The notes under the pieces: generated by a model
What the model saw: only the letters and a program-made list of their open reading frames with translations
Told to the model about the DNA's origin: nothing
The model's database searches: none
Assembly (NCBI GenBank): GCA_016195025.1
Contig: JACQAL010000078.1
Span: 1 to 43,000, forward strand
DNA length: 43,000 bases
Direction: 5' to 3'
Source of the DNA: Bacteroidota bacterium
GTDB taxonomy: Bacteria > Bacteroidota > Bacteroidia > Palsa-948
Shown: piece by piece, positions 661 to 5,945 of the stretch
Position numbering within the stretch: position 1 is the stretch's first letter
Layout of the letters: the number at the start of each line of letters is the position of its first letter
Program-made: the position numbers and the translations under genes

Positions 661-3207
661 ATGAAAAAATATTTTTTACTCACCTCCGCTTGTCTCCTTG
701 TTTCTTATTTTATTTCCGCTCAGGTTTGGAATGATGAAATAATTTTCCGCATGGAAATGAAAAACCAGGGAATGACAGAGGAAATGATAAACCAGGCGGT
801 GAATGAGCACACCCAATTTTTAAAAGAAGGAAAAACTATTTCCACTCCTGCTCAGTTTAAAAATAATTTCATTCCTGTTCCCAATGCCGTGTGCAGCGAT
901 TTAGGCGTGGAGAACGGATGGGGCGCCTGGCAGGCGTTCCAGGGGAAAAATATTCAGGGCGGAGGATTGTCGCTTGCGCCAACTTCGCCTGTTTCTCCGC
1001 GCTTCACTCTGATGAGCGGAAACGGAATTGATGCCTGCACACCCGGTCCGCTTGCCGGCTCTCCCGTCATTACTGAAGTGGCTCCGGGTTTTGGAAACTA
1101 TACCATCCGCCTTGGCGAGCCGAATACAAACGGAGTTCAGGGCGGCTGCTGCAACACGGTTACCGCTGGATGTGCCGAGCAGTTAATTTATCCGCTGAGC
1201 GTGACTGCGCAGGATACAAATTTTGTTTACTCGTATGCCATTGTGATTGAGAACCCGCAGAACGGGCATCTTGTTTCGGAAGCGCCTTATGCCGAAATTT
1301 ATATTCTGGATTCCAAAGGCGACACGGTGCCGTGCAGCCATCACAAGTACATGGGAAATGTTTTGGATTCATCCGTTGCGCCCGGAATGTATCGTGGCGG
1401 CTGCGCGAGCACTTATATTCCCGCCTGGAAAGATATTACCTACAAGCCATGGACCATTGAAGGAATAAATTTATCGGCTTATGTGGGGCAGGCGCTCACC
1501 GTTGTGCTCACGAATGCCGATTGCCAGCAGGGCGGGCATTTTTGCCATTCGTACTGGGATTTTTCCTGCGGAATAATTAACGGAACAAAAACGTTGAACT
1601 GCAACGCTGCGGTGCAGGATACTTTTTGCGCCCCGGGTTCTGACCCCAGCAATCCCTATACCTACGCATGGACTCAAAACGGAAATGCTGCCGTAATCGG
1701 AACTTCGCAATGTTTGATTGCCACCGTGAATCCTAACGATACTTTTTATGTGGAGGTGCAGCAGCAATCGGGCTGCCCGTTTCATTTGATTTATGTTCCG
1801 AACACGCAGCAGGTCAGTCCTGCGTTTTCCACTTCGGGAAATTGTTCCTCCCTATCCTTTACCGATAACACTGCTTCCAATCCTGCGTGGACTATTGCTT
1901 CGTGGAACTGGAGTTTTCCCGGAGGAAATCCTTCTTCGTCCACATTGCAGAATCCCGGACCCATTATTTTTCCTGCGGGAACGTATACCATAACGCTGAC
2001 TGTTACAACCAATACCGGCTGCACGGGAACGGTTCAGCAGGTTATCACTTTCGGAACGCCTCCGACTATTTCGGTTACGAGTTTTTCTTCCTGCTCCAGC
2101 GCAAACAACGGAAGCGCCTCTGCAATTGTTTCCGGTGGAAGCAGCCCTTATACCTATAACTGGTCGCCTGCGGCAGGAAGCAATTCATCGGTTTCAGGAT
2201 TGGCGGGCGGAACTTATACGGTGCTTGTGACTGATGCAAACGGATGCGCAACTTCTGCAACCACTACGGTTTCTGTTTCTCCTCCTCCCGTTGCTTCGGC
2301 AACTTCGGCAACTGTTTGCGCAGGACAAAATGCAATTCTTACTGCGAGCGGTGGCGGCAATTATTTATGGAGCAATGGAGCAACCGCTTCTTCCATTACT
2401 ATTTCTTCTGCCGGAAATTATTCCGTAATTGTTTCGGTGGGCTCGTGTGCCGATACCGCCTATAGTTCCGTAATGGTTACTCCTTCGCCTTCGGTGAATC
2501 TCGGAAACAATCAAACGCTTTGTGACGGACAAAATTTTATGCTCAATGCAGGCAATGCGGGCGCGGGCTATTTATGGAGCACGGGTGAAACTTCGCAGAC
2601 AATTTCGGTTTCGGGAGCGGGAACTTACTGGGTGATTGTGGCGTTGAATAATTGCCTGGCGAAAGATACGGTGCAGACATTCATTGCTCCGAAGGTGCAT
2701 CTTTTTGATTCATCGCTTTGCACGGCTTCGCCCATTGTGCTTGATGCGGGAAGCAATGCTTCTTCGTATAGTTGGAGCAATGGCGCTGCCACGCAAACCA
2801 TTTCGGTTAGTGAAGCGGGAAATTACTGGGTTCAGGCAAGTTTTGGAAACTGCGTTTCGTCCGATACGGCAAAAATCACCGGCATGGAAGGAGGAGCGGG
2901 CGCGCTCTATGTTCCAAACGCATTTACTCCGAATGGCGATCGCCTGAATGAAATTTTCCTGGCGAAAGGGGAAGGAATCACATCCTTTGATATGAAAATT
3001 TTTGACCGCTGGGGAAATTTAATTTTTGCTTCCGCCAATATGAAGGAGGGATGGGATGGAAAAATTCAGGGCGGGCATTATTTGCTGAAAGAAGATGGAA
3101 GCGAACCCGCGCAGGAAGATGTTTACATCTGGAAAATTAATTATACCACGCAGTGTTTTCCTGCAAAAGAGATGCGCGAGACGGGGCAGGTGAGCATTGT
3201 GAAGTAA
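661..3207 (+). CDS. large secreted adhesin-like protein with PKD and SprB-type repeats and CHU_C (T9SS type B) C terminus
   Basis: 848 aa. An N-terminal signal peptide (about residues 1-20, ending ISAQ) is followed by a region of about 380 residues with paired cysteines. Next come a PKD-like domain (about 405-465, WNWSFPGGNP), a SprB-type repeat (about 475-530, SSVSGLAGGTYTVLVTDANG) and two or three Ig-like repeats of the form YLWSxGxTxxxI. The last 95 residues carry VPNAFTPNGDRLNE and FDRWGNLIF, the signature of the gliding-motility-associated C-terminal domain (CHU_C), which directs T9SS export and surface attachment. Expected location is the cell surface. No catalytic domain was recognised, so adhesion is an inference. 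Its last codons (SIVK and stop) are copied downstream at 3871-3885. Confidence 0.9.
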   Translation: MKKYFLLTSACLLVSYFISAQVWNDEIIFRMEMKNQGMTEEMINQAVNEHTQFLKEGKTISTPAQFKNNFIPVPNAVCSDLGVENGWGAWQAFQGKNIQGGGLSLAPTSPVSPRFTLMSGNGIDACTPGPLAGSPVITEVAPGFGNYTIRLGEPNTNGVQGGCCNTVTAGCAEQLIYPLSVTAQDTNFVYSYAIVIENPQNGHLVSEAPYAEIYILDSKGDTVPCSHHKYMGNVLDSSVAPGMYRGGCASTYIPAWKDITYKPWTIEGINLSAYVGQALTVVLTNADCQQGGHFCHSYWDFSCGIINGTKTLNCNAAVQDTFCAPGSDPSNPYTYAWTQNGNAAVIGTSQCLIATVNPNDTFYVEVQQQSGCPFHLIYVPNTQQVSPAFSTSGNCSSLSFTDNTASNPAWTIASWNWSFPGGNPSSSTLQNPGPIIFPAGTYTITLTVTTNTGCTGTVQQVITFGTPPTISVTSFSSCSSANNGSASAIVSGGSSPYTYNWSPAAGSNSSVSGLAGGTYTVLVTDANGCATSATTTVSVSPPPVASATSATVCAGQNAILTASGGGNYLWSNGATASSITISSAGNYSVIVSVGSCADTAYSSVMVTPSPSVNLGNNQTLCDGQNFMLNAGNAGAGYLWSTGETSQTISVSGAGTYWVIVALNNCLAKDTVQTFIAPKVHLFDSSLCTASPIVLDAGSNASSYSWSNGAATQTISVSEAGNYWVQASFGNCVSSDTAKITGMEGGAGALYVPNAFTPNGDRLNEIFLAKGEGITSFDMKIFDRWGNLIFASANMKEGWDGKIQGGHYLLKEDGSEPAQEDVYIWKINYTTQCFPAKEMRETGQVSIVK

Positions 3208-3237
3208 AATGGAAGGCGATATACGAATAGCGTTGAC
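3193..3237. repeat. 45-bp direct repeat, copy 1 (flanks toxin-antitoxin pair)
   Basis: This is 43/45 identical to 3871-3915. It starts in the last four codons of the CHU_C gene, includes its stop codon and continues about 30 bases into the 3' flank. The two copies bracket the toxin-antitoxin module. Confidence 0.85.
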
Positions 3238-3246
3238 GAGGCAGTA

Positions 3247-3495
3247 TTATTTATAATGATTTGTAATTTGAAAAACTTCCGCTTCTCCTTGAGGAGTAAT
3301 GAAAAACAATGCCCTATACTTTGAATCAAGACGGAAAGAATAAATTCCGCGCCAATGCGGCTCAAGGATTTCGGTATTTAAAGAAGGGTGGCGGATATTT
3401 ATTTCAAACAGGCGAACAGATTTTTCCCATTTCTTTTGAAGATGATGCTTGTGAATGTATTCAAGCAAATCATTCCGCAGAGATTTTATTTTCAT
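3247..3495 (-). CDS. RelE/ParE-family toxin
   Basis: 82 aa. The fold signals fit the RelE/ParE toxin superfamily: N-terminal helices, then IYSFRLDSKYRALFFI with the arginine-rich beta-strand pattern (RGIYSFRL, KYRALF), and a short C-terminal strand ending in ITNHYK. RelE-type members are ribosome-dependent mRNA endonucleases; ParE-type members target gyrase. Sequence alone does not separate the two here, though the family resemblance is closer to RelE. The start codon overlaps the stop of the upstream antitoxin (ATGA), the usual translational coupling of these modules. Confidence 0.75.
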   Translation of the reverse strand: MKIKSLRNDLLEYIHKHHLQKKWEKSVRLFEINIRHPSLNTEILEPHWRGIYSFRLDSKYRALFFITPQGEAEVFQITNHYK

Positions 3496-3870: not shown

Positions 3871-3915
3871 AGCATTGTGAAATAAAATGGAAGGCGATAT
3901 ACGAATAGCGTTAAC
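3871..3915. repeat. 45-bp direct repeat, copy 2
   Basis: Second copy of the 3193-3237 sequence, with two substitutions. It still encodes SIVK and a stop codon (AAATAA in place of AAGTAA), so it looks like the 3' end of a CHU_C-type gene carried or left on the far side of the toxin-antitoxin cassette. Confidence 0.85.
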
Positions 3916-3934
3916 AAATGCGCATATACGAATA

Positions 3935-3987
3935 TCACTTTACTACAATCATCTTCTTACTCCCCACACTTCCTTTGCTCGTTTGCA
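3935..3987 (-). repeat. copied tail of a T9SS cargo gene
   Basis: On the minus strand this encodes QTSKGSVGSKKMIVVK and a stop, nearly the same as the last codons of the intact gene at 4049. It is separated from that gene's stop codon only by the palindromic element at 3991-4050, and has no reading frame of its own. Confidence 0.85.
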
Positions 3988-3990
3988 AAA

Positions 3991-4050
3991 AACTCACCCT
4001 GTCCTTCGGACATCCCTCTCTATCAGATAGAGAGGGAATGAGGGTGAGTT
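3991..4050. repeat. palindromic element P1 (CTCACCC...GGGTGAG)
   Basis: A 60-base inverted repeat with outer arms AACTCACCCT/AGGGTGAGTT, an inner hairpin CCCTCTCTATC/GATAGAGAGGG and the family word GTCCTTCGGACAT. Related copies lie at 4952-5011, 14943-15004, 20374-20436 and 20975-21043. It sits immediately after, and supplies the first base pairs of, the stop codon region of the 4049 gene. Confidence 0.85.
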
Positions 4051-4873
4051 ATTTCACCACCACCATCTTCTTGCTCCCCACACTTCCTTTACTTGTTTGC
4101 AGTTGGTAAAAATAAGTTCCCGCTTGCAGTTGCGTGTTATCAAGCAGTAAATCATTAAAAGTATCATCCACTTTGTAGCGTTTTACCTCTGCGCCTTGCG
4201 TGTTGTATAAAATTATTTCTCCCTCGCGCTCTCCTTTTGGCAACTCATATTGCAGGGTTGCTTTGCCGGTGCTGGGGTTTGGGTAAAGGTTGCCTAAGCC
4301 CTGCGCCTGCATAAGCGCGGCATTGCCCTCTTGTATGCCGCTGCTTAATGTGCCGGGTAAGCCAAATACTTTTGCCTGCCCGTTAGGGCAACTTAAAATC
4401 ATTTTTGTCCCAAAAGAGGTATTGTAAATTGGTAATTGTTGTTGCTCATAATTTGTTTTTATCCAAGCTAAACTTGTATCTGAAAAAAGCAAAGTACCAT
4501 CTTCATTATATATGCCTGTATAAAAACCTCCCGAAACAGGAGTATCATACATAAATTCGATTTTATCATCCAAATTAAACAGATGTTCTGACAAATAAAG
4601 AACATCGAAAACACCACTTGGCGTTGGAACGCCAGCAAGAGAAATGGTTTTGACTAAAGAATGATTCATATCATAAATATCAATTACCGCCTGAGCCCTG
4701 TTGACTTTAACATAGTGCTCTCCTGAAACTTCAAATTTTATTATCATTAACTGACTGCCTTTACTACTCGGAACATTCCATGTTGCTGCACTATCGTAAA
4801 TGTGTTCCAGAGTTATCTGCGCTTGTGTATTTGTTGCAAACGCGATAAGAGATATAATAATATATTTTTTCAT
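4049..4873 (-). CDS. T9SS type A sorted secreted protein (paralogue 1)
   Basis: 274 aa with a signal peptide (residues 1-19, ending TQAQ) and a middle region of beta-rich, unrecognised sequence with the phrase YVKVNRAQAVIDIYDMNHS. The C-terminal sorting domain spans about 195-274 (LYPNPSTGK, EIILYNTQGAEV, LQAGTYFYQLQTSKG). It is a close paralogue of the gene at 5010 (the sorting domains are almost identical) and a more distant one of 17167. Such proteins leave through the T9SS and are anchored or released at the surface; the middle region has no assigned function. A duplicated tail lies just downstream. Confidence 0.85.
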   Translation of the reverse strand: MKKYIIISLIAFATNTQAQITLEHIYDSAATWNVPSSKGSQLMIIKFEVSGEHYVKVNRAQAVIDIYDMNHSLVKTISLAGVPTPSGVFDVLYLSEHLFNLDDKIEFMYDTPVSGGFYTGIYNEDGTLLFSDTSLAWIKTNYEQQQLPIYNTSFGTKMILSCPNGQAKVFGLPGTLSSGIQEGNAALMQAQGLGNLYPNPSTGKATLQYELPKGEREGEIILYNTQGAEVKRYKVDDTFNDLLLDNTQLQAGTYFYQLQTSKGSVGSKKMVVVK

Positions 4874-4905
4874 GTTAAATGTGTTTTTGTAATTTTTATT
4901 TTACT

Positions 4906-4947
4906 ACAATCATCTTTTTCGCTCCCACACTTCCCTTACTCGTTTGC
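4906..4947 (-). repeat. copied T9SS gene tail, second instance
   Basis: On the minus strand this reads TSKGSVGAKKMIVVK and a stop, matching the last codons of the gene at 5010. It is separated from that gene's stop only by the palindromic element at 4952-5011, repeating the arrangement at 3935-4050. Confidence 0.85.
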
Positions 4948-4951
4948 AAAA

Positions 4952-5011
4952 AACTCACCCTGTCTTTCAGACATCCCTCTCTTTCTGAAAGAGAGGGAAT
5001 GAGGGAGAGTT
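4952..5011. repeat. palindromic element P1, second copy
   Basis: Same family as 3991-4050: AACTCACCCTGTCTTTCAGA followed by an inner hairpin CCCTCTCTTTC/GAAAGAGAGGG. It abuts the stop codon of the gene at 5010. Confidence 0.85.
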
Positions 5012-5861
5012 ATTTGATTACCACCATTTTTTTTGTTCCCACACTTCCCTTGCTTGTTTGCAGTTGATAAAAATAAGTTCCCGCAGGCAGTTGCGTGTTA
5101 TCAAGCAGTAAATCCTTAAAAGTATCATCTACTTTGTAGCGTTTTACCTCTGCGCCCTGTGTGTTGTATAAAATTATTTCTCCCTCGCGCTCGCCTTTGG
5201 GCAACTCATATTGCAGTGTTACTTTGCCGGTGCTGGGGTTTGGGTAAAGGTTGCTTATTGCGCCCTGCGCCTGCATGAGCGCGGCATTGCCCTCCTGTAT
5301 GCCTGCGCTTAATGTGCCAGGCAAAGAAAATACTTTTGCCTTAAAACTACTTAAAGTACTTCCCTTATAACTTAAAATCATTTTTGTGCCTTGCGTAGTA
5401 TTATAAATAGGATATTGCTGCGAAGGGAAATTAATCAAAATTTCCGCAATAGCAGTGTCAGAAAAAATCAAAGTGCCATCGTCATTATATATTCCGGTAT
5501 AAATATAAGGCGGAGTAGATGTTTGATCTGACGTGTACATAAATTCAATTCCAGGGTCAGTATCAAACAATGATTCTGAAAGATATAGTATGTACAGATT
5601 TGGCGACCCGGGAAAACCTGAAAGGTCAATTGTTTTAAGTAAAACATGATTCAAATCATATATAGATATTTTTTCTCCGTGCCTGTTTATTTTAACATAT
5701 CTGTCTCCTGAAACTTCAAAATGTACTAACTCCAATTGGTCGCTTAAGGCTGGGCTTCCACTTTTAAAAGTGGAAGCAGTATCGTAGGAATGTTCCAAAG
5801 CAATCTGTGCATTTGCATTTATACTATATGCAAGCAAGATAATGTATATGATTTTTTTCAT
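5010..5861 (-). CDS. T9SS type A sorted secreted protein (paralogue 2)
   Basis: 283 aa when started at the ATG at 5861, which gives a proper signal peptide (MKKIIYIILLAYSINANAQ). An upstream in-frame start at 5936 would add 25 residues without signal-peptide character and was rejected. The middle region matches the 4049 paralogue (RYVKINRHGEKISIYDLNHV). The sorting domain is about 204-283 (NLYPNPSTGKVTLQYELP). Exported by the T9SS, function unknown. A TATCTTTA motif about 25 bases upstream on the minus strand is a possible -7 element. Confidence 0.85.
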   Translation of the reverse strand: MKKIIYIILLAYSINANAQIALEHSYDTASTFKSGSPALSDQLELVHFEVSGDRYVKINRHGEKISIYDLNHVLLKTIDLSGFPGSPNLYILYLSESLFDTDPGIEFMYTSDQTSTPPYIYTGIYNDDGTLIFSDTAIAEILINFPSQQYPIYNTTQGTKMILSYKGSTLSSFKAKVFSLPGTLSAGIQEGNAALMQAQGAISNLYPNPSTGKVTLQYELPKGEREGEIILYNTQGAEVKRYKVDDTFKDLLLDNTQLPAGTYFYQLQTSKGSVGTKKMVVIK

Positions 5862-5945
5862 AGTAGTAGTTTTATTAGTTTGTGTAAAGATAAATATTTT
5901 TGAGATAAATAAAAAAAGCCAATCTGCAGGTCTCACGCCAAGTCA

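What the first reader, a model, noticed from the sequence alone, without database searches (positions are those of the whole stretch)
3935..4102. Duplicated T9SS gene tail around a palindromic element, first instance
The last codons of the cargo gene at 4049 (TSKGSVGSKKMVVVK) are present again right after its stop, separated only by a 60-base palindrome. Both copies carry their own stop. This looks like insertion of the palindrome with a duplication of about 50 bases that regenerates the gene's end, a known trick of elements integrating at gene 3' ends but here with a tiny non-coding element.
Basis: seen in the sequence. Interest (0 to 1): 0.65.

Follow-up and report, generated by a model that had tools for sequence, protein, structure and literature searches.

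The report
Stacked secretion-signal gene ends around palindrome
A bacterial gene for a secreted protein is followed by a 60-base hairpin and then by a second, slightly different copy of its own last codons; the evidence points to gene ends being swapped by recombination, with the old end left behind, rather than to a tiny hairpin copying 50 bases as it jumped in.

Summary
The T9SS type A cargo gene at 4049-4873 (minus) ends in TSKGSVGSKKMVVVK-TAA (tail A). A 60-bp palindrome P (3991-4050) follows, then TSKGSVGSKKMIVVK-TGA (tail B). The same layout follows the tandem paralogue (5010-5936).

The proposed mechanism, P inserting with a ~50-bp target duplication, is not supported. A and B are 82% identical, no closer than A is to paralogue tails elsewhere (82-87%), and 7 of 8 differences are at third codon positions. 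P copies differ by only 5-10%. A P copy inside a signal-peptide coding region has no duplication.

Instead, tail-P and tail-Q are recurrent gene ends. A-P-type ends recur elsewhere, and B plus the next palindrome Q matches the functional end of another T9SS gene (85% over 66 nt). The sorting-domain cores of the two window paralogues are homogenised (0.89 identical same-residue codons versus 0.61 in the cargo). Best reading: recombination among the many T9SS sorting-domain genes replaced the tail with an A-P end and left the older B-Q end as an orphan. Fungal mitochondrial genes show similar C-terminal replacement, but carried by endonuclease ORFs. No empty allele was available, so direction and mechanism are inferred.

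The parts
4049..4873 (-). G1, T9SS type A cargo gene (274 aa); sorting domain residues 196-272
   Evidence: TIGR04183 38.8 bits and PF18962 43.7 bits
4049..4102 (-). tail A1: last codons of G1 (QTSKGSVGSKKMVVVK + TAA); the stop's AA are the first bases of P
   Evidence: sequence
3991..4050 (-). P1, 60-bp imperfect palindrome AACTCACCC...GGGTGAGTT
   Evidence: predicted RNA fold -34.5 kcal/mol; 12 good copies in the genome, most with these boundaries
3935..3988 (-). tail B1: orphan T9SS gene end (QTSKGSVGSKKMIVVK + TGA)
   Evidence: 82% to A1, 7 of 8 differences at third codon positions; with Q matches a functional gene end at C16:139618-139683
3898..3934 (-). Q, second palindromic repeat flush with B1's stop
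   Evidence: same tail-TGA-Q junction at C16:139665 and C64:3657
5010..5936 (-). G2, tandem paralogue of G1, T9SS type A cargo gene (ORF as listed; the homologous start is an ATG further in, MKKIIYIILLAYS)
   Evidence: TIGR04183 38.1 bits
5010..5063 (-). tail A2 (TSKGSVGTKKMVVIK + TAA)
4952..5011 (-). P2, second copy of the palindrome
   Evidence: 6 of 60 differences to P1, each 3 of 60 from the C17 copy
4896..4949 (-). tail B2, orphan gene end (TSKGSVGAKKMIVVK + TAA), about 20 bp before the start of G1

Best explanation
Tail B is an authentic older T9SS gene end that was cut off from the gene, not a target-site duplication made when P inserted. T9SS sorting-domain ends are a large family of related sequences in this genome and recombine with each other. 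An end consisting of a tail plus its downstream palindrome (A-P) was joined into the gene through the shared tail and sorting-domain sequence. It gave the gene a new in-frame tail and stop (the TAA uses P's AA) and pushed the previous end (B, in G1 with its palindrome Q) downstream as an orphan. Copies of the composite tail-P-tail can then spread between T9SS genes by homologous recombination or gene conversion, because both sides of P match other T9SS gene ends. Shown: the composite structure, its recurrence, the coding-type divergence of the tails, sorting-domain homogenisation, and the small divergence of P relative to the A/B split. Inferred: the order of events, which tail was native, and whether a circle, a double crossover or template switching did it.
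For: (1) A1/B1 differ at 8 of 45 sites, 7 of them third positions, and A1 is as close to other paralogue tails (82-87%) as to B1. (2) P1 and P2 differ from the C17 copy by 3 of 60 each, so P looks younger than the A/B split. (3) Tail-P is found joined to an unrelated half-site at C17, with no second tail. Tail B + TGA + Q matches the end of an intact gene at C16 (85% over 66 nt), and the TGA-Q junction recurs at the C64 gene end. (4) G1-G2 same-residue codons are identical at 0.61 in cargo, 0.89 in the sorting-domain core and 0.54 in the last 16 codons, a sign of conversion of the core. (5) In class-2 loci, tails after P have a constant 5' half and a variable 3' half including the stop (TAA/TAG/TGA), and tails before P lean the other way (permutation P 0.011 and 0.042). 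This is the pattern expected if P arrives by recombination inside a resident tail. (6) In the middle of the tail, A and B share locus-specific bases (codons 3, 7, 8, 9), while codons 1 and 12 group by type. (7) C15 has tail-P-tail-P-tail.
Against: No empty or ancestral allele was found, because close relatives lack both P and the locus. Tails are only 45 nt, so the tests are weak one by one, and the class-2 copies are related, so their permutation P values are optimistic. Hairpin constraint or conversion among P copies could make P look younger than it is. G1 and G2 share the same P-B junction, so the window probably gives one founding event, not two. The genome is a draft assembly whose reads I could not check.
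Confidence: 0.62

Rival explanations
1. P is a mobile palindrome whose insertion at the stop codon duplicates about 36-54 bp of the gene end. A and B later drifted apart, helped by conversion from paralogues.
For: P sits exactly at T|AA of T9SS stop codons in 8 of 12 copies. Left and right tails match within class. C15 shows a tail-P-tail-P-tail array.
Against: A/B divergence is paralogue-level and mostly synonymous, while P copies differ by 5-10%. P at C37 has no duplication. P at C17 and C53 has a tail on one side only. The duplicated length differs between classes. Orphan tails occur without P.
Confidence: 0.13
2. Tail B is the remnant of a neighbouring tandem T9SS gene whose body was deleted, P being the original spacer.
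For: The family occurs in tandem pairs (G2-G1 in the window, two genes on C12). B evolved like a coding end. Larger sorting-domain fragments sit behind other genes (C32, C16, G005 C54).
Against: The deletion would have had to stop within the last ~18 codons at the same spot in G1 and G2, and within the last ~12 codons at several class-2 loci with a constant P-tail junction, unless all were copied from one founder. It does not by itself explain tail-P-tail-P-tail at C15.
Confidence: 0.13
3. Tail B is a spare sorting signal reached by stop-codon readthrough: in both window genes P is open and B is in frame with A.
For: Reading through the TAA gives an open frame of P codons and tail B in W1 and W2.
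Against: At C26, C15b, C13 and C42 tail B is out of frame, and C15a has a TGA inside P. No recoding signal was sought or is known.
Confidence: 0.04
4. Assembly artefact from repeats in a draft assembly.
For: 79 contigs, and P and the tails are multicopy.
Against: The structure recurs at several places with different sequences on both sides of P, and A, B and P of the two window genes differ from each other.
Confidence: 0.04

Closest known systems
Mobile-ORF C-terminal replacement in fungal mitochondrial genes (Allomyces atp6; Glomus atp6, atp9, cox2, nad3; PMC3630166)
   Same: An inserted element supplies a new in-frame gene end, and the native C-terminal end is displaced downstream, the two ends differing much more in DNA than in protein.
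   Different: There the element encodes a homing endonuclease. Here there is only a 60-bp palindrome with no ORF, in a bacterial secreted-protein family where donor ends exist in the same genome.
Repetitive extragenic palindromes (GTAG and CGTC REPs; PMC3733652)
   Same: Short multicopy palindromes close to gene ends. GTAG REPs often provide the stop codon of the flanking ORF, as P does here.
   Different: P has no GTAG or CGTC tag at its ends, is 60 bp, has about 12 good copies, and none of the three Y1 transposase genes of the genome is flanked by it.
Rickettsia palindromic elements (in-frame insertion in genes; from general knowledge and PMC3733652)
   Same: The C37 copy of P is a clean in-frame 60-bp insertion in a coding region.
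   Different: The window copies lie at the stop codon; no CGTC end.
Domain exchange and gene conversion among T9SS surface proteins of Porphyromonas gingivalis (PMC5266723)
   Same: Recombination between segments of T9SS cargo genes.
   Different: That paper describes adhesin-domain and allele exchange; the passages I read do not mention stacked sorting-signal ends or palindromes.

Membership tests
GTAG REP / RAYT system | GTAG tetranucleotide at one end of the palindrome | tested here: not met
   P ends are AACTC...GAGTT in the copies read
GTAG REP / RAYT system | dedicated tyrosine transposase gene flanked by the repeat | tested here: not met
   three PF01797 genes in the genome; no P near any of them
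CGTC REP / Rickettsia palindromic element | CGTC at one end | tested here: not met
   ends of the 12 copies
MITE | terminal inverted repeats plus a short target-site duplication | tested here: not met
   P is palindromic end to end, but no short duplication flanks the C37 copy, and flanks of other copies match only through tails
Fungal mitochondrial mobile-ORF tail replacement | replacement tail in frame, second tail displaced downstream with mainly synonymous differences | tested here: met
Fungal mitochondrial mobile-ORF tail replacement | endonuclease ORF in the inserted element | tested here: not met
   only about 60 bp between the tails
Fungal mitochondrial mobile-ORF tail replacement | displaced tail matches that of a relative without the element | tested here: inconclusive
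   no relative with the locus; B+Q matches another gene end in the same genome
T9SS type A cargo | C-terminal sorting domain TIGR04183/PF18962 above cut-off | tested here: met
Target-site duplication by transposition | a duplication of similar length at each insertion, no more diverged than the element itself | tested here: not met

The most novel reading that the evidence does not exclude
P plus a T9SS tail is a protein-free mobile unit of about 100 bp that uses the tail it carries as homology to settle at the ends of T9SS cargo genes. It keeps the reading frame, donates a new sorting-signal end and a hairpin, and piles up displaced ends behind genes: a bacterial counterpart of the fungal tail-replacing elements without an endonuclease.
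Probability: 0.2. Interest if true: 0.72.

Novelty: new variant of a known kind. Interest (0 to 1): 0.48.

Why it matters
T9SS cargo families are large, and exchange of homologous sorting domains normally leaves no scar. Orphan ends behind palindromes would be such a scar: they record that the C-terminal end of a gene was replaced, and by which subtype. If confirmed, they would allow sorting-signal replacements to be counted, and would allow a test of whether palindromes promote recombination at gene ends.

Tried and rejected
Stop-codon readthrough was rejected for most loci by frame. REP/RAYT was rejected by end sequence and transposase neighbourhood. Rfam gave only weak sub-threshold hits to plastid 3'UTR hairpins. 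The intrinsic-terminator scan did not list P, possibly because P folds with an internal side hairpin; P1 and P2 are followed by six T. A PSSM scan for orphan tails behind 90 T9SS genes found 4 hits against 3.6 in shuffles and missed a known class-2 tail (C26), so it was uninformative. The P family in relatives: essentially only this genome (3 of 395 class genomes with any hit, own included). No viral contig held the tested 30-base core of P. The named-genome search for G1 gave only two distant relatives (46% and 25%), in Chitinophagales and Bacteroidetes MAGs. Searches for literature on T9SS tail conversion or shuffling gave one related paper or none.

Full report
What is there. On the minus strand the gene at 4049-4873 (G1) and its tandem paralogue at 5010-5936 (G2) are T9SS type A cargo proteins with a C-terminal sorting domain. 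Each ends in a tail (A), is followed by a 60-bp imperfect palindrome P, and then by a second tail (B) with its own stop. P begins with AA, and these two bases complete the TAA stop of the gene.

P in the genome. P has 12 good copies, with the same 60-bp limits in most. Relatives in the genus lack it apart from degenerate stretches in one, and only 3 of 395 genomes of the class, this one included, gave any hit. Eight copies start exactly at T|AA of a T9SS tail, and two more follow such a stop after a 19-bp palindrome. A second tail follows P at both window genes, C26, C15, C13 and C42; C15 has tail-P-tail-P-tail. C17 has tail-P and no tail after it, C53 has P-tail and no tail before it, and C37 has P alone inside the signal-peptide coding region, in frame and without any flanking duplication. 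P is inverted in the class-2 loci relative to the window.

Is B a target-site duplication? A1 and B1 are 82% identical over 15 codons; seven of eight differences are at third positions. A1 is equally close, or closer, to tails of paralogues on other contigs and in a sister species (82-87%). P copies, in contrast, differ by 2-6 of 60 bases in the six compared. A duplication made at P's insertion should be about as diverged as P and should not be diverged in a coding manner, since B has no evident way to be translated. Class-2 A and B tails (SKIYTEKVVIQ and LKVFTEKVVIQ) are different sequences. Together with the C37, C17 and C53 copies, this argues against a duplication produced by P.

What B is. 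B1 plus Q matches, across the stop codon, the functional end of a T9SS gene at C16:139665 (85% over 66 nt), and the TGA-Q junction recurs at another gene end at C64. B therefore has the form of a real gene end. Orphan sorting-domain ends without P lie behind other T9SS genes at C16:71556 and C32:18643 and, in the sister genome G005, behind an unrelated type B-like gene. Gene ends of this family are thus found joined behind other gene ends with or without P.

Signs of recombination. Between G1 and G2, codons for the same residue are identical in 0.61 of cases in the cargo part, 0.89 in the first 64 codons of the sorting domain and 0.54 in the last 16 codons. The core is homogenised and the extreme end is not. 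In the tail, codons 3, 7, 8 and 9 carry bases shared by A and B of the same locus, while codons 1 and 12 group by type. In class-2 loci the tails after P have a constant first half and a variable second half with all three stop codons; tails before P are more variable at the start and more constant at the end (permutation P 0.011 and 0.042; the copies are related, so these values are optimistic). This is the pattern left when a P-bearing end recombines inside a resident tail.

Most likely mechanism. A T9SS end consisting of tail plus palindrome was joined into the gene by recombination through shared sorting-domain and tail sequence. It gave the gene a new in-frame end and left the previous end, B with Q, as an orphan. 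The tail-P-tail composite can then spread among the T9SS genes of this genome (at least 150 sorting-domain matches), because both its sides match them. The order of events and the molecular route are inferred. The deleted-neighbour rival remains possible for the window alone.

Comparison. The closest described case is the replacement of C-terminal ends of mitochondrial genes by mobile endonuclease ORFs, with the native end displaced downstream (PMC3630166). The logic is alike, but here no ORF is present. P resembles REPs in place and in supplying a stop codon (PMC3733652), but it lacks their GTAG or CGTC ends and any transposase partner found here. I file it as a new variant of a known kind.

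Noticed in passing
3193-3237 and 3871-3915: 45-bp direct repeats (96%) that both carry the end of the T9SS type B gene 661-3207 (SIVK + stop) plus 30 bp of flank. They enclose a small module on the minus strand with a weak Txe/YoeB-like toxin match (3247-3495) and a likely antitoxin upstream: a second, more recent-looking gene-tail duplication in the same window.
   Followed up: partly
L176 (G000:C37) 4803-4862: P inserted in frame in the signal-peptide coding region of a T9SS kelch-like gene; joined flanks read an ordinary signal peptide, and P supplies a new ATG just upstream of the hydrophobic stretch.
   Followed up: partly
L101 and L132 (C19, C55), L109 (C17): attC-like palindromic structures (GTAACAG...CGGAACGTTAGC) behind T9SS genes ending DKLVIADK; at C17 what looks like the left half of such a site is fused to a T9SS tail-P unit.
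   Followed up: no
L085 / L166 (C42:53390, C76:135178): A different palindrome (CATCCCCCTTATTCCCCCTTCAAAAAGGGGGACAGAAGTTC) lies inside T9SS sorting domains just before the last strand, apparently in frame, reminiscent of Rickettsia palindromic elements.
   Followed up: no
L069 and L118 (C26): Two T9SS genes on one contig are followed right after the stop by another P-like palindrome (ACTCACCCCGACTTCGTCACCCCTCTCTATGCATAGAGAGGGGAAGGGGGAGAGT), without a tail copy.
   Followed up: no
L083, L084, L165 (C18, C60, C4): Half-P sequences preceded by a shared segment (GATTTRTTTCAGTAT); two of them run on into the LKVFTEKVVIQ tail, at C18 forming a tiny ORF with a signal peptide and a tail.
   Followed up: no
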